Positions 9,344 to 45,507 of a stretch of DNA of 60,297 nucleotides are shown one piece after another. The notes under the pieces were generated by a model. The model was not told the DNA's origin. It made no database searches and worked only from the letters and a program-made list of their open reading frames with translations. How positions within the stretch are numbered: the first letter of the stretch is position 1; the number at the start of each line of letters is the position of its first letter. Source of the stretch: an uncultured Methanobrevibacter sp. (GTDB taxonomy: Archaea; Methanobacteriota; Methanobacteria; Methanobacteriales; Methanobacteriaceae); the NCBI GenBank assembly GCA_902777885.1, contig CACYVR010000001.1, positions 1 to 60,297 of the forward strand. The letters are read 5' to 3'. Made by a program: the position numbers and the translations under genes.

Positions 9344-10090
9344 CTAGTCCGATAAAGCACCAATCCCTTCTAAAAAAGTGTCTAATATTTGTTGAATATT
9401 ATCTACTTGATTAAATAAAATCTCACATAAAGGAAGATTATACTGCTCGCAATAATCTCTTTTTTGATTATCATGTTTAGTAATATTTGAATTATAATAA
9501 ATATTGTTTTTATCAAAATGTTGTGAACCTTGAAATTCTATTAAACCTAAAAGTCGATTTTCTTTAAAAATAGCAAAATCAAATCTTAAAGGCAAAACAT
9601 CCCGTAAATCTTTAAAAGAATATTCTCTTTGAAAAGATATTCCTTTTTCTTTTAAACAATCTGCAACATAATCCTCCCAATAATGACCCCTCTTACAGCC
9701 ACAAGATAAAGTTTCTTTACTAAGAAGCTCACGACTTGAGGCTATTTTCTTTAAACCACAATCACACTGGCAAAGCCAAAGTTGATAACCGTGTGAATTA
9801 GTTCCAATAACATACTGCGGAATTAACAAACCAATTTTTATATTTGTCAAATCTCTCTTGGTAATGTCACCAAAATGTTTTTGTCGTTGTTTTGAAAGAC
9901 AACCGCAAGATTTTTGAGATTTATTTTTACGAGTTAATTCAGCTCCAATAATAGATTTTTCAACGCCACAATCACATCGACAAATCCATCGTTTTTGACG
10001 TCCTGCTCTTATTTTTTCAAAATCCTCGTCTAAGGATAAAACAGTTAACTGACCAAAACGTAAACCTGTTAAATCTTTTGCTTTAGCCAT
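9344..10090 (-). CDS. EDxHD-type (Vsr-like) homing endonuclease with CDCG zinc repeats
   Basis: 248 residues. The N-terminal half has two repeats of the type LTGxRFGxLTVL ... WxCxCDCG ... SCGC, likely zinc-binding and DNA-contacting. The C-terminal third has the PD-(D/E)XK-like core of EDxHD endonucleases: RFDFAIF, then LIEFQGSQHF, then DYCEQYNLPL. Three relatives lie at 27098, 29579 and 58040. Such free-standing enzymes cut a cognate allele and copy themselves by repair. It sits between a leader and a gene that seems to have lost its start, fitting recent insertion. Confidence 0.8.
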   Translation of the reverse strand: MAKAKDLTGLRFGQLTVLSLDEDFEKIRAGRQKRWICRCDCGVEKSIIGAELTRKNKSQKSCGCLSKQRQKHFGDITKRDLTNIKIGLLIPQYVIGTNSHGYQLWLCQCDCGLKKIASSRELLSKETLSCGCKRGHYWEDYVADCLKEKGISFQREYSFKDLRDVLPLRFDFAIFKENRLLGLIEFQGSQHFDKNNIYYNSNITKHDNQKRDYCEQYNLPLCEILFNQVDNIQQILDTFLEGIGALSD

Positions 10091-20475: not shown

Positions 20476-20553
20476 GGATTGTTGATTGCAATTGGCAGAC
20501 ATCTCATACTCAAAATATGAGTTTTCTGGGTTCGAATCCCAGACAATCTACCA
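20476..20553 (+). tRNA. tRNA-Leu(CAA) with short variable loop
   Basis: Acceptor GGATTGT/ACAATCT, anticodon arm TCATA-CTCAAAA-TATGA, T-arm CTGGG-TTCGAAT-CCCAG, discriminator A and encoded CCA. The variable region is only 5 bases although bacterial leucine tRNAs normally have a long arm. Confidence 0.8.
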
Positions 20554-20625
20554 TTGACGGGGCAGTTATGACAAACGTGGTCTATGTGAAATATTGGAAT
20601 AAACATCTGCCCACGTTTGAAATAT

Positions 20626-20699
20626 GCGGGATTAGGCAAATTGGCAAAGCCGCTTGTCTTAGAAACAAGTGTTTAACAGTTCAAATCTGTTATCCCGTA
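20626..20699 (+). tRNA. tRNA-Leu(TAG) with short variable loop
   Basis: Acceptor GCGGGAT/ATCCCGT, D-stem GGC/GCC, anticodon arm CTTGT-CTTAGAA-ACAAG, T-arm AACAG-TTCAAAT-CTGTT, discriminator A. No CCA is encoded. Short variable loop, as in the previous gene. Confidence 0.8.
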
Positions 20700-20729
20700 C
20701 TTTTAAAGGCTATAGCAAAAATGCTTAAT

Positions 20730-20758
20730 TTGAAAAAATTAAAAATTTTTGTTATAAT
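20730..20758 (+). promoter_or_regulatory. family promoter between tRNA-Leu(TAG) and the GIY-YIG gene
   Basis: TTGAAA, 17 bp, TATAATATATATAGAAAGTTAAG. The leader forms AGAAAGTT/AACTTTCT, then a long AATCATCATC/GATGATGATT stem at about 20791-20866 followed by TTTTTG, which would terminate or attenuate. A start-less frame ending FAPIKTDDDF crosses it. Confidence 0.85.
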
Positions 20759-20967
20759 ATATATAGAAAGTTAAGAAAAAACTTTCTAAATCATCATCGA
20801 CATTTATACAAGCAAAGACTTTTAAATCAGGGACATTTGCGCCAATAAAGACTGATGATGATTTTTGAAAATTAAGAAAGAGGAAGCGAAAGGTTTGGCC
20901 GCCTATGCGAGATAAGAGTGCTCCTATCACTCAGCTCTTAAAAATATTTCAATAGGAGTGAAATTAT

Positions 20968-21876
20968 ATGGAAAGAATTTGTGGAATTTATAAAATAACA
21001 AATAAAATCAATGGTCATAGCTATATCGGTCAGAGTGTAAATATATATGAGAGATGGCATAGCCATAAGTATGCTGATTGTAAACCATCTGCTATACACT
21101 TTGCTATTAAAAAGTATGGGTTGGAAAATTTTAATTTTGAAATCTTAGAGAGATGTTCCAGAGAACAGCTCAACGAGAGAGAGATTTACTGGATAGAATA
21201 TTACAACACCTATAAAGACGGATATAATTTAACCATTGGTGGTTCAGCTCCCATACTTTATGATTATAAAGAAATTTATGAATTATGGATAAGTGGTCTA
21301 TCTTGCAAAGAAATCCAAAACAAGCTGAAATGTGGCGATGGAGTTATTACTCAAGCATTGAGATATTATAATATTTCTGAGAAAGAAGTAAGAGCAAGAA
21401 TAGTAAACAATAAACCTATTGTTGCAATAGACGTTTTAACTCATAAGCCTTTAAAGGTATTTTCTTCAATTCGGAAAGCAAAATTATTTTTCGACAATAA
21501 TTTATTGCAAGAGGGCGCACTGGCAAGGAATATTAAAAAAGGTTTTAGATGGAAAGGGTACATTTGGGAATATTTAAATAAGAATAATTCTCCCAAAGAA
21601 AATTTATCAAATGAAGAATTTTTAAAATATCAACAAAGTCCTTTAAAAACTTATACACAAGAGCAAAAAGAACAATTTTCTTTATTAAACAGAAAAGTTG
21701 AAAGACCAACAAGAGAAGAATTAAAAAATAAAATAAGAGCTTTACCTTTTGTTCAAATAGGTAAATTATATGGTGTTACTGATAACACTATAAGAAAATG
21801 GTGTGATTATTATAACTTACCCCGCCGAGTAAAAGACATAAAACAATATGCTGATGAGGAGTGGGATAAATTGTAA
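20968..21876 (+). CDS. GIY-YIG homing endonuclease
   Basis: 302 residues. The catalytic domain is at 1-95: G6-I-Y8, then Y19-I-G21, R29 and a glutamate in the LNEREIYWIEYY helix, all as in GIY-YIG nucleases. A NUMOD-like DNA-binding module follows (IYELWISGLSCKEIQNKLK, PIVAIDVLTHKPLKVFSSI), then a C-terminal helix-turn-helix (IGKLYGVTDNTIRKWCDYY). It is free-standing inside the tRNA array, between two tRNA-Leu genes. RBS AATAGGAGTG. A group I intron is not visible around it. Likely spreads by cutting tRNA-cluster alleles. Confidence 0.9.
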   Translation: MERICGIYKITNKINGHSYIGQSVNIYERWHSHKYADCKPSAIHFAIKKYGLENFNFEILERCSREQLNEREIYWIEYYNTYKDGYNLTIGGSAPILYDYKEIYELWISGLSCKEIQNKLKCGDGVITQALRYYNISEKEVRARIVNNKPIVAIDVLTHKPLKVFSSIRKAKLFFDNNLLQEGALARNIKKGFRWKGYIWEYLNKNNSPKENLSNEEFLKYQQSPLKTYTQEQKEQFSLLNRKVERPTREELKNKIRALPFVQIGKLYGVTDNTIRKWCDYYNLPRRVKDIKQYADEEWDKL

Positions 21877-21885
21877 TAGGTATAT

Positions 21886-21974
21886 GGAGGCGTGGTGCAG
21901 CAGGCTGAGACACACTGAACTTAAAATTCAGTACATTAGAAACATCGAGGGTTCGATCCCCTCCGCCTCTACCA
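21886..21974 (+). tRNA. tRNA-Leu(TAA)
   Basis: Acceptor GGAGGCG/CGCCTCT, anticodon arm CTGAA-CTTAAAA-TTCAG, long variable arm as expected for leucine, T-arm GAGGG-TTCGATC-CCCTC, discriminator A and encoded CCA. Structurally normal, unlike the two leucine tRNAs upstream. Confidence 0.9.
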
Positions 21975-22194
21975 GCTATCGTTTGGTACCCGATATAAAA
22001 GTATGTGTACTGGGCTAACCAATGAACCCGCGCTCAAGAAGTTGACGTCATCTTGGCATAAGCAAAGAATGATGAGGGTAATGCAGTGAAACTAAATCGG
22101 CTGTCCTGTTTTCGTATACTTCGCAGATATATAGAAAGTAACTTGGAGTGACTTCCGTCCCAACGAGTGTTGCAACACAACGGAGTAGATATCT
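21975..22194 (+). other. structured spacer in the tRNA array
   Basis: No normal tRNA is found. A CAAGA/TCTTG stem around a loop containing TGACGTCA and a CTTCCGT/ACGGAG stem around TGTTGCAACA are present. The density of stems suggests further degenerate tRNA-like or processing elements. Confidence 0.35.
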
Positions 22195-22280
22195 GGGTGA
22201 GTAAACCGTTAAAGAGACGGGTGAGTCTGTAAAACTCATACCTATGGTTCGAGTGGGAGCGTTACCCTCTTCACCCACCA
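22195..22280 (+). tRNA. tRNA-Tyr(GTA) with altered D- and T-loops
   Basis: Acceptor GGGTGAG/TTCACCC, anticodon arm TGAGT-CTGTAAA-ACTCA, long variable arm (ACC-TAT-GGT) as expected for Tyr, discriminator A and encoded CCA. The T-loop reads AGCGTTA instead of TTCRANT, and the D-loop lacks the GG pair. Confidence 0.75.
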
Positions 22281-22481
22281 ACGGGTTTCGGATTAGATGT
22301 TGACCACGAGTAATGATTGCAAGTTACAAAGGTCTATCACTGAATAAAAAAACTTCGAAAGAAGAACTGCAAGTACTTGACTCCGATATAGCATACCCGT
22401 ACCAGAATAGCGGCATATGTTTGCGGACATATGGGAGATGAAAACCTACTCCATGCCAATAGGAAATGATTGGCACTACAT
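22281..22481 (+). other. spacer with possible tRNA-Ala(TGC)-like arm
   Basis: The stem GTAAT/GTTAC near 22312-22329 carries an 8-base loop containing ATTGCAA, an Ala-type anticodon context. No matching acceptor or T-arm is clear. A TTCGAAAGAA hairpin follows. Confidence 0.3.
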
Positions 22482-22553
22482 GGAGGATTAGTTTAATCAG
22501 TAAAACGCGCGGCTGATAATCGCGTAAAAGAGGAGCATAGCCTCTATCCTCCA
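22482..22553 (+). tRNA. tRNA-Ile(GAT) with altered T-loop
   Basis: Exactly 72 bases: acceptor GGAGGAT/ATCCTCC, D-arm GTTT-AATCAGTA-AAAC, anticodon arm CGCGG-CTGATAA-TCGCG, T-stem AGAGG/CCTCT. The T-loop is AGCATAG, and position 18 of the D-loop is A instead of G, a paired change with the T-loop. No CCA is encoded. Confidence 0.8.
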
Positions 22554-22627
22554 CTTAGGTTATGGCTACTTACCTTAAAAGTATAGAGTTCCGTGGATAA
22601 TCTCCGCCATTAAAATCCATATAATAT

Positions 22628-28002: not shown

Positions 28003-29463
28003 ATGAATAATAATTTAAAGTATACAGAAAAATCAGCTTTAGCTTTTAAATCAACACTATCAAAGGTTTATGATATGTTTGCTTTTGGAGGTGCGTATCG
28101 AAATCGTTCAGATGAAGATGTCATACTCTTATTTAGCGAAGCTTATGATGAAAACCCTGATTTGGCGTTGAAGTGTCTGTTCTATCTTCGCGATATTAGA
28201 GGAGTCGGTCAGGGTGAGCGTCGTTTCTTTGACGTTTGTTATAGATGGCTAGTTCAGACACATCCCCGCACAGCAACGAAACTTCTTCAATATCTTCCTG
28301 AATATGGGCGTTGGGATGAAGTTCTTAAAGTTACAGAGGGAACGAATTGTTGGGATAATGCAGTTGATCTTATTCAACATCAGCTGAAAGAAGATATCCG
28401 TTCTAACGGTCACCCCTCACTTTGCGCAAAGTGGATGCCGTCAGAAAATGCATCAAGTCAGGACACTGTCGCTCTTGCTAGCAACTTACGCAAGTCTTTG
28501 AACTTGACAAGTCGTCAGTATAGAAAGATGCTTTCAGAGCTTCGTGCTCAGATTAAACTCGTTGAAAGCCAGATGTCTCAGAATCATTGGGAAGAGATTC
28601 AGTTTGATAAACTACCCTCAAAAGCAGGTATGAAGTATCGTGCAGCTTTTGGACGTAATCCTATTACTTCAGAAAAGTATAGAAACTTTATGAATAACAA
28701 GGAAACAAAAGTAAACGCAGGAACACTTTATCCTTATGAAATTACTCATAAAGCTCGCGTTGGCTCTTTCTATTACGATTCTAATGATGTTGCCGTACTT
28801 GATAAGTATTGGAACAACCTTAAAGATTATTTTAATGGAGCAGACAACAGCATCATGTGTGTTTGCGATTTTTCTGGCTCAATGACTTGGAGCGGTTATC
28901 AGAATGTTCTTCCTATTGATATATCTCTGAGCCTTGGCATTTATACAGCGGAGAGAATGGGTGGTCCTTTTAAGAATAGTTTTATTTCCTTTTCCAACCG
29001 TCCTCAGTTTCATAGAGTATATGGCGACACAATAGTGGACAAGGTTAAGAATGTTCTGCGGACAGCAGAAGTTGCAAATACTAACTTGCCCGCTGTATTT
29101 GACCTATTTTACGATATGGTTGAAGATGGACGCGCAAACAGTGATGACTTGCCTAAAACCCTTGTTATTGTTTCCGATATGGAGATTGACACCGGATCAA
29201 ACTTTAGAAGCAAGTCGGAGGCAAGAACAACTATGGACCGAATCGCTGTTAAGTGGGCGGCGGCTGGTTTGAGATTCCCCAACGTTGTGTATTGGAATTG
29301 TAACGCAAGAAACAATACCATTCTTCAAGAACCGTCTTCTCGAATCACTTATGTGAGTGGGTGTTCCCCATCTATTTTTGAACAAGTTCTTTCTGGAAAA
29401 AGTGGAACGGAACTAATGTTACAGATATTACAGAGTAATCGTTATGAACCAATTAAAAGCTAA
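28003..29463 (+). CDS. TROVE/Ro60-like protein with vWA domain (DUF2828-type)
   Basis: 486 residues. The N-terminal helical-repeat part (DLALKCLFYLRDIRGVGQGE, YLPEYGRWDEVLK) matches the DUF2828/TROVE superfamily ring that in Ro60 binds misfolded and Y RNAs. The C-terminal half is a von Willebrand A domain with MIDAS DFSGSM (D at about 289), a later threonine region NTNLPAVFDLF and VSDMEID. Acts in the cytoplasm, probably as an RNA-binding scaffold. Richer codons than the flanking endonucleases. The start may be secondary because of the upstream insertion. Confidence 0.8.
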   Translation: MNNNLKYTEKSALAFKSTLSKVYDMFAFGGAYRNRSDEDVILLFSEAYDENPDLALKCLFYLRDIRGVGQGERRFFDVCYRWLVQTHPRTATKLLQYLPEYGRWDEVLKVTEGTNCWDNAVDLIQHQLKEDIRSNGHPSLCAKWMPSENASSQDTVALASNLRKSLNLTSRQYRKMLSELRAQIKLVESQMSQNHWEEIQFDKLPSKAGMKYRAAFGRNPITSEKYRNFMNNKETKVNAGTLYPYEITHKARVGSFYYDSNDVAVLDKYWNNLKDYFNGADNSIMCVCDFSGSMTWSGYQNVLPIDISLSLGIYTAERMGGPFKNSFISFSNRPQFHRVYGDTIVDKVKNVLRTAEVANTNLPAVFDLFYDMVEDGRANSDDLPKTLVIVSDMEIDTGSNFRSKSEARTTMDRIAVKWAAAGLRFPNVVYWNCNARNNTILQEPSSRITYVSGCSPSIFEQVLSGKSGTELMLQILQSNRYEPIKS

Positions 29464-29509: not shown

Positions 29510-29574
29510 ATTTTATCCATTCCATTTAAAAATTATATATATTAGAATGATAAAAATGGAATGAAAGGAATGGA
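29510..29574. repeat. inverted repeat in front of a homing endonuclease
   Basis: CATTCCATTT is mirrored by AAATGGAATG around an AT-rich loop, and AATGATAAAAATGGAATG echoes it once more. It may be a promoter/operator or mark the insertion edge. Confidence 0.5.
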
Positions 29575-29578
29575 ATAT

Positions 29579-30331
29579 ATGAGTAAGCTTATTGACTTAA
29601 CAGGGCAAAAATTTGGTAGATTGACTGTCTTATACAAAGATAATGATAGAAAAACAAATAGTGGCAGCTATTGGATTTGTAAATGTGAATGTGGTAAAGA
29701 AAAAAGTGTTCGTAGTTCATCTTTAAGACGAGGAGAGATTGTAAGTTGTGGATGCTACAGAATGGAAAAGACTATGAAAACAAAAGAAGAACGAGGTCTT
29801 ATAGATAATTTAATAGGACAAAAATTTGGTTTTTTAACAGTTATAGAAAAAGATCCACAAAGAACTAAAGATGGAAGTGTAAAATGGATTTGTCAATGTG
29901 ATTGTGGAAACATAGTATCTGTTCGTGGCGGAGCCTTAAAATTAAAAACTGTTAATAGAACAATATCTTGTGGCTGTTATCACATTCCTCTTGGAGAAAT
30001 AGAAATAAAAGATATTCTTGAAAAAAACAATATTCCATATGCACAACAACAGGGTTTTGATTCTCTACCTCGTCAACATTTTGATTTTTCTATATTAAAT
30101 GAAAAAGATAAAATTATCCGATTAATTGAATTTGATGGAGAACAACATTTTAAATATACAGGTCGTGGATGGAATACTAAAGAAAATTTTGAAAAAAATC
30201 AAGAACGTGATAAAAGAAAAAATCAATGGGCTTTAGAACACAATATTCCACTTATTCGCATACCATATTGGGAACGAGGAAAAATTACTTTAGATATGTT
30301 ATTGGGCGATCAATATCTAATAAATAAATAA
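29579..30331 (+). CDS. EDxHD-type homing endonuclease
   Basis: 250 residues from ATG 29579. Two repeats of LTGQKFGRLTVL..CKCECG..SCGC and LIGQKFGFLTVI..CQCDCG..SCGC, then the nuclease core HFDFSIL, LIEFDGEQHF and HNIPLIRIPYWE. Closest relative in the window is the copy at 27098; together they bracket the TROVE-vWA gene. Start chosen for AAAGG at workable spacing; an ATG 18 bases earlier also exists. Confidence 0.85.
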   Translation: MSKLIDLTGQKFGRLTVLYKDNDRKTNSGSYWICKCECGKEKSVRSSSLRRGEIVSCGCYRMEKTMKTKEERGLIDNLIGQKFGFLTVIEKDPQRTKDGSVKWICQCDCGNIVSVRGGALKLKTVNRTISCGCYHIPLGEIEIKDILEKNNIPYAQQQGFDSLPRQHFDFSILNEKDKIIRLIEFDGEQHFKYTGRGWNTKENFEKNQERDKRKNQWALEHNIPLIRIPYWERGKITLDMLLGDQYLINK

Positions 30332-38323: not shown

Positions 38324-40597
38324 ATGAAAAATAAAATTTATGATACTTTAAGAGAAAATCTCATAACAGACAAAAAGTGCTATCCTACGCTATCAGATCA
38401 AATGCAAAGATTTGTACAGATAGGCTTTACTTCTTATGATGGAAATGAGGATTTTCTTATGCCACCAACAGAAAAAACAAAAAAGCTATGGGATAAATTA
38501 CAACAATTACAAAAAGAAGAACAAAAAAACGGTGGTATACTAGATATGGATACAGATATTGTATCTACAATCACGTCCCATTCCCCCGGATACCTTGATA
38601 AAAAAAATGAAGTAATAGTTGGTTTACAAACAAATAAACCATTAAAGCGAGCGTTTATGCCTTTTGGTGGAATTAGGATGGCAGAACAGGCTTGCACAAC
38701 GAATGGTTATGTTCCATCTGGTGAACTCCATAAAATTTTCACAGAATATCATACAACGCATTCTGATGCTGTTTTTAGGATGTATAACAATGAGATAAAA
38801 AAATGTAGACATAATCATATTATTACTGGCTTGCCGGACACATATGGGCGAGGCCGCATCATTGGCGACTACAGACGAATAGCTCTGTTTGGAACAGATT
38901 ATTTAATTCAAGAGAAAAAAGAAGATATTAAAGAATTACACCAACAATTATCTTTTTTTGAGAAAATTGATGATAAACTTAAATTACTTGATGAGCTTGC
39001 ACAACAAGTACAAGCTCTTAAAAATATGACAACAATGGCGGATTTTTATGGATATGATATATCAAAACCTGCAAAAAACGCAAGAGAAGCGGTTCAATGG
39101 TTATATTTTGGTTATCTCGCTGCAATTAAATCGCAAAATGGCGCGGCAATGAGCGTTGGCAGAGTGTCTACTTTTTTAGATATTTATATTGAGCAAGATA
39201 TTCAGAATGGAGACCTTACAGAAAGCGAAGCACAAGAGTTAATTGACCAATTTGTATTAAAGCTACGCATGGTTCGCTTTGCTCGTATTCCCTCCTATAA
39301 TGAATTGTTTTCTGGTGATCCTGTATGGGCAACTCTTGAGATTGCGGGAATGCTTAATGATAAAAAACATATGGTCACAAAAACAGATTTCAGATTTCTT
39401 CATACTCTTGAGAACATGGGTCCTTCACCAGAACCAAATCTTACAGTTCTTTGGTCAGATAAACTTCCAGAAAACTTCAAAAAATATGCAGCAAAGATTT
39501 CAATAAATACAAGTTCAATTCAATATGAAAACGACGATCTAATGCGTAAATATTGGGGAAATGATTATTCTATTTGTTGTTGCGTATCGGCAGCAAAAAC
39601 TGGCGCATCACTTCAATTTTTTGGTGCTAGAGTAAATTTAGCCAAGTGTTTACTATATGCTATCAATGGTGGCATTGATGAAAAAACCTTTGAGCAAATT
39701 GGTCCAATAGAACCACCTCTTAAACAAGAAATTTTAGATTTTAAAACAGTATTAAAAAGATATGATAAATATCTTGCTTGGCTCGCGCTAGTATATATTG
39801 AAGCTCTTAACATCATTCATTATTGTCATGACAAATATTATTATGAAGCATCAGAAATGGCTTTAATTGATACGTATCCAGAACGCGTTCTTGCAACTGG
39901 AATCGCGGGGTTGTCTCATGTAGCAGATTCTTTAAGTGCAATTAAATACGCAAAAGTAAGACCAATCTATAATAAAGATGGCATTGCTGTTGATTATTGT
40001 GTTGAAGGAGATTTTCCTCGATATGGTAATGATGATGATAGAGTAGATGACATTGCAAAATGGGTTATGAAAGTATTTAGTAAACATTTAAAAAATAATA
40101 AAACATATAGAAATATTCCAATTACAACATCCCTATTAACTATTACTTCAAATGTTGTATATGGAAAAGCTACTGGCGCAACCCCAGACGGAAGAGCCGC
40201 ATGGACGCCATTCTCACCGGGCGCAAATCCAAGCTATGGCGCAGAAACCAATGGATTGCTTGCATCATTAAATTCAGTTGCAAAAATGCCATATGATTTA
40301 GCTCTTGATGGTATTTCAAATACTCAAACAATTAGCCCAGATGCTATTGGACATAATGAAGAAGAAAGAAAAGAAAATCTTATTGCTGTGCTTGATGGAT
40401 ACTTTAATCAAGGCGGACAACATTTAAATGTTAATATTTTTGGGACAGAAAAGCTAATAGATGCAATGGAGCACCCAGAGAAAGAGGAGTATGCAAATTT
40501 TACAATTCGAGTGTCAGGGTATGCTGTTAAGTTTATTAATTTAACAAAAGAACAACAACTCGACGTAATTCAACGGACTTGCCACAAGGCAATGTAA
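38324..40597 (+). CDS. pflB: pyruvate formate-lyase (glycyl-radical formate acetyltransferase)
   Basis: 757 residues, essentially the full length of bacterial PFL (about 760). The enzyme turns pyruvate and CoA into acetyl-CoA and formate without oxygen. The active-site cysteines are at 418 and 419 within SICCCVSA (a third cysteine follows), then [21 protein letters not shown]. The glycyl-radical loop RVSGYAVKF has its glycine at about 732. Also [21 protein letters not shown] and [10 protein letters not shown] are typical. No activating enzyme (PflA) is in the window, so a host activase would be needed. Preceded by the CodY-like gene in one operon. Confidence 0.95.
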
Positions 40598-43574: not shown

Positions 43575-44411
43575 ATGTTAAATTACTCAAAAGAAGTAAA
43601 TGAAAAAATTTACACATCTTTATTTTATCATTATTATATGATGTGTGATAAATATGGTGAAGATAATATCTTTGGTATCTTCACAGTAGGAAGTATGAAT
43701 TATGGTAGCTATAACCCTGATACTTCAGATGTAGATACAAAACTTGTTATTATACCAAGCGCAGATGAGATACTCGCACTAAAGCCTTCACCGATTAGTA
43801 CAAGTAATGATATTAAAAATGAAAAATGTAATGTTCAAGATATCCGTGCTTTCTTTAAAGGATTGATGAATCAAAGCCCCAATTCACTTGAAGTTTTGGT
43901 AACACCATTTTATTATATAAATCCAAAATGGGCATATATTTGGGATTATATTATACCTAATGTAGACGAAATTGCACATATTAATGAAGCACGTTTTATT
44001 AGCTCTGTACTTGGACAGATTAAACAATTTTTAACTAATACCACCCTTACACCGAAACAAGCTTATCATTGTGAAAGATTAGCTATTGTTTGTAAAAGAT
44101 ATATTGAAGGGCAGTCTTTAAAAGATTGTATTCAATTAGATGAGCCGACACAAGAATGGCTTAATAAAATTAAATTTAATAAAAATCCAATTGATTGTCT
44201 TATTGATCTCGATGAAGAAATGAAACTTTTTGAAGATTTTATTCAAAAAAATAAAAAACCAGAACCAATGACTTATCCTTTATTCACCGAAATTTTAAGA
44301 ATTGTTTTTTTAGAAACACTTTCTAAAAAGGAGGACTATAATGTTACAGTTACAGGAGTTCATATTGACCCATTGGAATTGGCGAGAGGAATTAATCCAA
44401 GATCCTTATAA
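43575..44411 (+). CDS. nucleotidyltransferase-fold protein
   Basis: 278 residues. The polymerase-beta-like signature is VGSMNYGSYNPDTSDVD, with G39-S40 and the metal-binding D52 and D54. A helical C-terminal half follows. Such stand-alone enzymes add nucleotides to proteins, antibiotics or RNA ends. Directly upstream of, and overlapping by 71 bases, the RNA ligase gene, so an RNA-end role (tailing or repair) is plausible. RBS AGAAGGG. Confidence 0.7.
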   Translation: MLNYSKEVNEKIYTSLFYHYYMMCDKYGEDNIFGIFTVGSMNYGSYNPDTSDVDTKLVIIPSADEILALKPSPISTSNDIKNEKCNVQDIRAFFKGLMNQSPNSLEVLVTPFYYINPKWAYIWDYIIPNVDEIAHINEARFISSVLGQIKQFLTNTTLTPKQAYHCERLAIVCKRYIEGQSLKDCIQLDEPTQEWLNKIKFNKNPIDCLIDLDEEMKLFEDFIQKNKKPEPMTYPLFTEILRIVFLETLSKKEDYNVTVTGVHIDPLELARGINPRSL

Positions 44412-45507
44412 TCTTAAAATATCTGAAAAAGATGGCTTTTATCTTTTTAAATATTCACAGCTGAATTCTGATTTTTCAAAAGAAATATGCCGCGAAGCAA
44501 GAGGAATAATACTTGACTCCCGCAACAATTGGAAAGTGGTTCGTCTTGCTTTCTACAAATTCTTTAATCAAGGTGAACAATATGCTGATCAATTAGATTG
44601 GGATTCAGCAATAGCAACTGAAAAAATAGATGGCTCTATAATGACATTATGGTATGCGCGCGGAGAATGGCATCTTTCAACTAATGGCTCTATTGATGCC
44701 GCTGATGCGCAAGTTAATATCACTAATTATACCTTTAAACAAGTATTTGATGTGGCAGCGGAAAAATGTGAATTAGATTATTCAAAACTTAACCCTCAAT
44801 ACAACTATACTTTTGAACTTGTGTCGCCATACAATCGAGTAGTTCTTCAATATGATACTCCTGCAATATATCATCTTTCTACTCGTGATATGGAATCTTT
44901 AGAAGAAATAGAAGTAGATATAGGTATACAGAAGCCAAAACAATATGAGTGTAATAGTTTAAAAGATTATCAACTTCTCGTATCTAAAATGGACGAAAAT
45001 CATGAGGGTATAGTGGTAAGAGATAAAAGTTATCATCGTGTAAAATTAAAAACTCTTTTCTATTTTGACCTTCATAGAAAAGCTAATAATGGTCATATCA
45101 CTCTTGAACGGGCACTCGATATAATCCGCGCCAATGAGCAGGAAGAGTTTCTTGTATATTTCCCAGAATATAAAGCATATTTTTCCGCAATCTATGAACA
45201 ATACCATGATTTTTTAAATACTTGCAATGTTATTAATACTAACGTTCAATATTGGATAAGCAATCATATAAATGAACCAATATTTTCTAAAAATAAAAAA
45301 CAAGAAATACATAAGAAACTTCGTGGTTCTTTTGCTCAATTTGTTAAGAATTATATCAACCCCCATTATCGTTTTATAGCTTTTTCAAGCTATGACTATA
45401 AGATGCAACAAGTTATAGATGAACTGTCTTCTGCAAAAATAATAGAATTAATCAATATGAAAGACAAGGTAAAATTGGAGGAATTAATTAATTATGAAAA
45501 TAATTAA
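44341..45507 (+). CDS. T4 Rnl1-like RNA ligase
   Basis: 388 residues. Ligase motifs in order: nucleophile loop EKIDGS with the adenylated lysine at K95 (K99 in T4), the preceding CREARGIILD strand, motif IIIa-like TFELVSP, motif IV HEGIVVRD, motif V VKLKT. A C-terminal helical domain follows, as in Rnl1, which seals tRNA cut in the anticodon loop. AAAAGGAGG precedes ATG 44341. Start chosen for that site despite the overlap with the upstream gene. Ends SSAKIIELINMKDKVKLEEL, a tail duplicated just downstream. Confidence 0.9.
   Translation: MLQLQEFILTHWNWREELIQDPYNLKISEKDGFYLFKYSQLNSDFSKEICREARGIILDSRNNWKVVRLAFYKFFNQGEQYADQLDWDSAIATEKIDGSIMTLWYARGEWHLSTNGSIDAADAQVNITNYTFKQVFDVAAEKCELDYSKLNPQYNYTFELVSPYNRVVLQYDTPAIYHLSTRDMESLEEIEVDIGIQKPKQYECNSLKDYQLLVSKMDENHEGIVVRDKSYHRVKLKTLFYFDLHRKANNGHITLERALDIIRANEQEEFLVYFPEYKAYFSAIYEQYHDFLNTCNVINTNVQYWISNHINEPIFSKNKKQEIHKKLRGSFAQFVKNYINPHYRFIAFSSYDYKMQQVIDELSSAKIIELINMKDKVKLEELINYENN

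What the first reader, a model, noticed from the sequence alone, without database searches (positions are those of the whole stretch)
28003..29463. Ro60-like TROVE-vWA protein beside a field of degenerate tRNA-like elements
Bacterial Ro60 relatives bind Y RNAs, some of which (YrlA) carry tRNA-like modules. Here a TROVE/DUF2828-vWA gene lies just downstream of several tRNA-like RNAs, one of them without an anticodon arm. The RNAs could be its ligands.
Basis: inference. Interest (0 to 1): 0.75.

Follow-up and report, generated by a model that had tools for sequence, protein, structure and literature searches.

The report
Phage Ro60 gene with Y-RNA array
A large bacterial virus carries a relative of the human autoimmune antigen Ro60 next to a cluster of small 'Y' RNAs, one of which is built into the middle of a transfer-RNA gene, and the same protein-RNA set recurs in many other phages and in gut bacteria beside an RNA-repair enzyme.

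Summary
The gene is real and is a Ro60 homologue. Pfam calls it DUF2828 + DUF7788, not TROVE. The predicted fold matches Ro60 over 424 residues (Z 23.0), and every top structural hit is a Ro60. The protein family is already annotated in about 680 phages. They are a small-RNA family that Rfam did not recognise: a closing stem followed by ACAGCAA. A covariance model built without the window finds three copies 1.3-4.1 kb upstream of the gene (E 5e-8 to 5e-7); a fourth is weaker. The stem covaries. In 80 bacterial loci, 184 such elements lie on the gene strand within 1 kb upstream, against 1 on the other strand, and RtcB ligase lies beside the gene in 37 of 80. A fifth copy is a 54-nt insert inside a tRNA gene (23796-23922); deleting it leaves a perfect tRNA-Gly(UCC). 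Similar tRNA/Y hybrids, and permuted YrlA-like ones, occur in other phages. I read this as a phage Ro-Y RNP for tRNA surveillance or repair. Phage Y RNAs have been proposed before. The divergent Ro branch, the arrays and the unpermuted tRNA hybrids look new, but Chen 2014 could not be read. No RNA binding was tested.

The parts
28003..29463 (+). Ro60-like protein (DUF2828 ring domain + DUF7788 vWA domain), 486 aa; MIDAS DFSGS at residues 289-293
   Evidence: AlphaFold model pLDDT 84.7; Ro60 fold Z 23.0 over 424 aa
23930..24023 (+). Y-RNA-like element 1: stem AAGGCGCAU/AUGCGCCUU + ACAGCAA; encloses T-arm-like and further hairpins in tRNA order
   Evidence: CM R1 built without the window, 42.8 bits, E 5.5e-8; folding z -3.1
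26570..26642 (+). Y-RNA-like element 2: stem UAAGCGCA/UGCGCUUA + ACAGCAA
   Evidence: CM R1 38.9 bits, E 5.1e-7
26676..26751 (+). Y-RNA-like element 3: stem AAGGCAGA/UCUGCCUU + ACAGCAA
   Evidence: CM R1 40.2 bits, E 2.4e-7
24110..24238 (+). probable Y-RNA-like element 4, weaker: stem AAAGCACA/UGUGCUUU, ACAGCAA 3 nt inside it, T-arm-like hairpin inside
   Evidence: read from sequence; folds with that stem, z -1.8; too long for CM R1, which did not report it
23796..23922 (+). tRNA/Y hybrid: acceptor, D and T arms of a tRNA with a Y hairpin (UGAGUUUA-gauu-UAAACUCA then UACAGCAA) inserted in the 5' strand of the anticodon stem
   Evidence: Rfam tRNA 52 bits with a 127-nt span; folding z -4.4; not called by ARAGORN, but deletion of 54 nt gives a perfect tRNA-Gly(UCC); CM R1 E 0.0011 at 23848-23906
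23826..23879 (+). the 54-nt insert of the hybrid (ends ambiguous by 1-2 nt)
26946..27038 (+). orphan N-terminus of the Ro gene (MNTFMNELERKFNTKYTENG...), which shares the 15-bp repeat AAAGTATACAGAAAA with the present gene start
27098..27988 (+). HNH homing-type endonuclease gene inserted between the orphan N-terminus and the present start of the Ro gene
   Evidence: phrog_374/559
20476..26889 (+). tRNA gene array (18 by ARAGORN) in which the Y elements lie
44341..45507 (+). Rnl1-type RNA ligase, possible repair partner encoded 15 kb downstream
   Evidence: phrog_562, 3.4e-42

Best explanation
This is a phage-encoded Ro60-type ribonucleoprotein set: one Ro60-fold protein of the DUF2828/DUF7788 branch plus several Y-RNA-like small RNAs transcribed from the tRNA array just upstream. 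The protein probably binds the conserved Y helix (closing stem plus the ACAGCAA internal loop). What lies on the far side of that helix varies: nothing tRNA-like, a tRNA-like module in permuted order (as in YrlA), or a complete tRNA. The RNP most likely serves tRNA and structured-RNA surveillance or repair during infection, the job Ro-Y RNPs do in bacteria beside RtcB, and may present tRNA mimics to tRNA-acting enzymes. Shown by computation: the Ro fold, the RNA family, its covariation, its strand- and position-specific link to the Ro gene across phages and bacteria, and the RtcB neighbour in bacteria. Inferred: expression in this phage, binding, and the repair role.
For: Protein: Foldseek hits with E <= 0.001 are all Ro60. 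The ten best VIA-align rows are Ro60/TROVE (Z 12.9-23.0, 384-424 aa); the next row is a lone vWA domain at Z 9.9. RNA: in 84 phage loci, 101 elements lie on the gene strand within 2 kb upstream against 2 on the other strand. In 80 bacterial loci, 184 against 1 lie within 1 kb, and 74 of 80 loci have at least one. Covariation: with its own 5' strand, 119 of 193 motifs form a stem of score 7 or more; with strands swapped between elements the mean is 15 and the maximum 22. All 8 stem pairs change on both sides. A model built without the window finds the window copies and copies beside the Ro gene in Staphylococcus 6ec, FelixO1 and Lolly9, and none in T4's tRNA region. It finds one just upstream of the Ro gene of Prevotella Lak-A2, whose protein is only 22% identical. 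It has no hit at E <= 0.001 in 40 related host genomes, and only the three window copies in the window's own assembly. RtcB lies within 3.5 kb on the same strand in 37 of 80 bacterial loci. Listeria phage cka15 has three copies directly upstream of its Ro gene, in a gap without annotated genes, after a sigma-A-like promoter. That paper reports three highly transcribed non-coding regions within 2 kb upstream of the gene and finds the protein in virions (PMC12282133).
Against: No binding or expression data exist for this phage. The only highly transcribed cka15 region with published coordinates (26,236-26,727) does not contain the element, so the expression link to my elements is indirect. Sequence identity to solved Ro60 is 8-16%. 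RtcB is absent from the phage loci apart from cka15, and from about half the bacterial ones; a divergent RtcB could have been missed. Most elements have no tRNA module. The strand test and the swap test select on stems or the motif, though the controls share that selection.
Confidence: 0.72

Rival explanations
1. The tRNA/Y hybrids and permuted tRNAs are interrupted tRNA genes: the Y hairpin is an intron-like piece that is removed and the halves are joined (by RtcB or a phage RNA ligase), giving working tRNAs and free Y RNAs.
For: Deleting 54 nt from 23796-23922 turns an uncallable sequence into a perfect tRNA-Gly(UCC). 15 of 35 unpermuted and 14 of 46 permuted candidates rebuild a 5-bp anticodon stem with a proper loop across the Y junction, against means of 2.8 and 3.2 with swapped halves (maxima 8 and 9 of 200 shuffles). 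An RtcB or RNA ligase gene is nearby in many loci.
Against: Most Y elements have no tRNA. Several rebuilt anticodons are odd (AAG, AUG, UUA). Many hybrids have no intact anticodon arm. No bacterial endonuclease is known to me that would make the cuts. An intact tRNA at 24350-24423 already reads the same codons.
Confidence: 0.08
2. The Y RNAs with tRNA modules are decoys: they offer tRNA-like bodies and anticodon arms to host nucleases that cut tRNA in phage defence, held by the Ro protein.
For: Hybrids carry varied anticodon arms. The elements sit in phage tRNA arrays. The Salmonella study raised YrlA as a possible competitive inhibitor of an anticodon nuclease (PMC7790460).
Against: Most elements lack any tRNA part. 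The same set sits in bacterial chromosomes beside RtcB, which points to repair rather than a purely anti-defence role. No nuclease was tested.
Confidence: 0.12
3. The elements are processing signals or transcription terminators of the tRNA array, unrelated to the Ro protein.
For: They lie between tRNA genes and end in a stem.
Against: They track the Ro gene even where no tRNA lies near (29 of 80 bacterial loci have a tRNA within 6 kb, 74 of 80 have elements). They can lie downstream of the gene (6ec, Lolly9, FelixO1). None was found in T4's tRNA region. Terminators do not need the conserved ACAGCAA.
Confidence: 0.05

Closest known systems
Bacterial Ro60 (Rsr) with Y RNAs, including YrlA; Salmonella rsr-yrlBA-rtcBA RNA-repair operon (PMC7790460; Chen et al. 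2014, cited there and in PMC12282133)
   Same: Ro60 fold; small RNAs beside the gene; closing stem formed by the RNA ends; tRNA-like module in permuted order in some; RtcB neighbour in many bacterial loci
   Different: Protein belongs to DUF2828/DUF7788, not Pfam TROVE; arrays of several RNAs inside phage tRNA arrays; some RNAs unpermuted, with tRNA ends outside and the Y stem closed by a loop
Ro60 of Thermus phage phiLo (PDB 9l5y)
   Same: Phage-encoded Ro60 fold (Z 14.4)
   Different: 15% sequence identity over the aligned part; its RNAs were not examined here
Mycobacteriophage 'Ro-like RNA binding protein' family (phrog_850)
   Same: Same protein family, 37-39% identical; Lolly9 has a plain Y element and a permuted tRNA element just downstream
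   Different: Y RNAs lie downstream; mycobacteriophage Y RNAs are already reported according to PMC12282133
Permuted tRNA genes of red algae and archaea (from memory)
   Same: T half before D half, joined through an acceptor loop
   Different: Here the junction in the anticodon stem is a Y helix; processing to tRNA is not shown

Membership tests
Ro60 / TROVE protein | Ring of helical repeats plus vWA domain with the Ro60 fold | tested here: met
   Z 23.0, 424 aa against 1yvr; top ten rows all Ro60/TROVE
Ro60 / TROVE protein | Match to Pfam PF05731 TROVE | tested here: not met
   0 of 38 members match PF05731; all match DUF2828 and DUF7788. So it is filed as a divergent homologue by fold, not as a member of Pfam's TROVE family
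Ro60 / TROVE protein | MIDAS motif DxSxS in the vWA domain | tested here: met
   D289, S291, S293 invariant; T360 and D392 invariant in 38 relatives
Ro60 / TROVE protein | Binds Y RNA on the outer ring surface | not testable with these tools
   needs a binding assay
Bacterial Y RNA | Encoded next to a Ro gene | tested here: met
Bacterial Y RNA | 5' and 3' ends pair in a stem with a conserved internal loop | tested here: met
   covarying stem + invariant CAGCAA; in the unpermuted hybrids the stem is closed by a loop instead
Bacterial Y RNA | Same protein-binding motif as experimentally studied YrlA or Deinococcus Y RNA | not tested
   no cellular rsr-yrlA locus and no held paper with that sequence could be obtained
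YrlA | tRNA-like domain in permuted order (T arm, closed acceptor, D arm) | tested here: met
   met in other phages (e.g. L087, L089, L103), not in any window copy
Rfam RNA family | Match above gathering score | tested here: not met
   only tRNA in the window; only tRNA, tmRNA and ROOL in seven related loci

The most novel reading that the evidence does not exclude
Phages and gut bacteria carry interrupted and permuted tRNA genes whose 'intron' is a Y RNA: a Ro protein holds the Y helix, the insert is cut out and a ligase (RtcB, or a phage RNA ligase) joins the tRNA halves. That would be protein-dependent tRNA splicing in bacteria and would explain why Y RNAs look like permuted tRNAs.
Probability: 0.08. 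Interest if true: 0.92.

Novelty: new variant of a known kind. Interest (0 to 1): 0.62.

Why it matters
It gives a sequence and structure signature (covarying stem + ACAGCAA) for a Y-RNA class that no Rfam family matched in these searches. It ties that class to a Ro60 branch still named 'domain of unknown function'. The unpermuted tRNA/Y hybrids make the origin of tRNA mimicry in Y RNAs testable: the permuted and unpermuted forms are the same circle opened at different places, joined at about the same spot in the anticodon stem, with several different anticodons, which suggests that Y RNAs arose from tRNA genes more than once. The RtcB neighbour in gut bacteria links it to RNA repair.

Tried and rejected
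Rfam search for YrlA or Y RNA: no hit in the window or in seven related loci. Sequence search of PDB with the protein and with the profile: no Ro60, only vWA fragments; the fold comparison was needed. PADLOC: no meaningful defence-family match. T4 rnaC and rnaD, small stable RNAs of unknown role, were examined as possible Y RNAs: no element. The host's phylum has no Pfam TROVE gene in 151 genomes, so a cellular rsr-yrlA locus for motif comparison was not available there; 'of' did not accept another lineage. The key papers (Chen 2014, Sim and Wolin reviews, Burroughs and Aravind 2016) are not held, so what they already describe could not be checked. A T5 control record was not held. Candidate lists contain some false entries (ordinary neighbouring tRNAs), which lowers the observed share.

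Full report
Observation. The ORF at 28003-29463 is there. Pfam splits it into DUF2828 and DUF7788 and does not call TROVE. PHROGs puts it in phrog_850, 'RNA-binding protein'. tblastn finds it in 680 phage records, many annotated 'Ro-like RNA binding protein'. So the protein family as such is known.

Protein. A first model from 5 sequences (pLDDT 70.8) already had only Ro60 structures among its hits with E <= 0.001. A model from 28 relatives (pLDDT 84.7, pTM 0.84) aligns to Xenopus Ro60 over 424 residues at Z 23.0. The ten best rows are all Ro60/TROVE, including Deinococcus Rsr and a Thermus phage Ro60, and the next is a lone vWA domain at Z 9.9. MIDAS residues are invariant in 38 relatives. 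Sequence identity to solved Ro60 is only 8-16%.

RNA family. Five ACAGCAA motifs lie at 23857-26691 on the gene strand. Each sits just inside or beside a stem, and the same arrangement recurs upstream of the gene in all five nearest IMG/VR relatives. In 84 phage loci the density on the gene strand in the 2 kb upstream is 0.64 per kb against 0.01 on the other strand. In 80 bacterial loci it is 184 against 1 in the last kilobase. Swapping 5' strands between elements reduces stems of score 7 or more from 119 to a mean of 15. In a 52-sequence alignment all eight pairs have two-sided changes and the covariation score is 0.556 against 0.217 shuffled. Those 52 had been chosen for having a stem, so the swap test is the cleaner evidence.

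Independent test on the window. A covariance model built without any window sequence finds 23930-24023, 26676-26751 and 26570-26642 with E 5.5e-8 to 5.1e-7, and the hybrid motif at E 0.001. A wider search finds only the first three in the window's own assembly and nothing at E <= 0.001 in 40 related genomes. The same model finds elements beside the Ro gene in phages left out of training, and one just upstream of the very distant Lak-A2 Ro gene.

Topologies. Most elements have no tRNA features. Some enclose T arm, closed acceptor and D arm, in that order, as recalled for YrlA. A third group keeps the tRNA in normal order and carries the Y hairpin, closed by a short loop, in or next to the anticodon stem: 28 candidates on the gene strand against 2 on the other. 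These include phage tRNAs annotated as undetermined in Synechococcus B23 and Cronobacter S13. The window copy at 23796-23922 is of this kind. ARAGORN does not call it, but after removal of 54 nt it is a perfect tRNA-Gly(UCC). Across candidates, 15 of 35 unpermuted and 14 of 46 permuted ones rebuild a 5-bp anticodon stem with U33 and a purine at 37 across the junction, against 2.8 and 3.2 on average with swapped halves. The anticodon arm is therefore often complete, and both forms share about the same junction.

Context. In bacteria RtcB lies beside the gene on the same strand in 37 of 80 loci (Pfam check). The window phage has an Rnl1-type ligase and Listeria cka15 has RtcB and an RNA ligase downstream. 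In cka15 the Ro protein was found in virions and three non-coding regions within 2 kb upstream are highly transcribed (PMC12282133). My three elements lie in an unannotated gap directly upstream of the gene, after a sigma-A-like promoter, but the paper gives coordinates only for another region.

Reading. The set works like a bacterial Ro-Y RNP. By fold and locus it is a Ro60 relative with Y RNAs, filed as a divergent branch because it fails the Pfam TROVE model. Whether its loop is the same as that of studied YrlA was not tested. The repair role is inferred from RtcB and from the studied operons. The splicing reading is kept as the novel case at 0.08.

The Ro gene itself has been disturbed: an orphan N-terminus at 26946-27038 and the present start share a 15-bp repeat, with an HNH endonuclease gene between them. 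No Rfam intron family was found there, so an insertion with a new start codon is preferred.

Noticed in passing
window 26946-28030: HNH endonuclease gene inserted at the 5' end of the Ro gene; orphan N-terminus left upstream, 15-bp direct repeat AAAGTATACAGAAAA at 26987 and 28017.
   Followed up: partly
window 25645-25701: 57-nt tRNA without anticodon arm, with CCA encoded just after it; no Y stem found in it.
   Followed up: partly
window 23121-23193: tRNA-Cys-like sequence (GCA) with an unusual T loop, not called by ARAGORN or Rfam.
   Followed up: no
L070, L072, L075, L077, L078, L081, L082, L085: In many tRNA/Y hybrids the closing loop of the Y hairpin reads CAUG-NNN-GUG or close to it; role unknown.
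   Followed up: no
L106-L175 (bacterial loci): Chromosomal set of Y-RNA array, DUF2828 Ro and RtcB in gut Firmicutes, one with a WYL regulator gene upstream (L175); looks like a second kind of RNA-repair operon.
   Followed up: partly
L086 4450-4941 (Listeria cka15): The most highly transcribed non-coding region of the phage does not hold the ACAGCAA element; a different RNA.
   Followed up: partly
L013 1-563; L002 7412-7756; L030 4572-4855; L036 2485-2742: ROOL RNA in one and tmRNA genes in three related phage contigs near the Ro gene.
   Followed up: no
window 38324-40597: Phage-encoded pyruvate-formate-lyase-like glycyl radical enzyme.
   Followed up: no
window 9344-10090, 20968-21876, 29561-30331, 58040-58942: Further homing-type endonuclease genes (HNH and GIY-YIG).
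   Followed up: no
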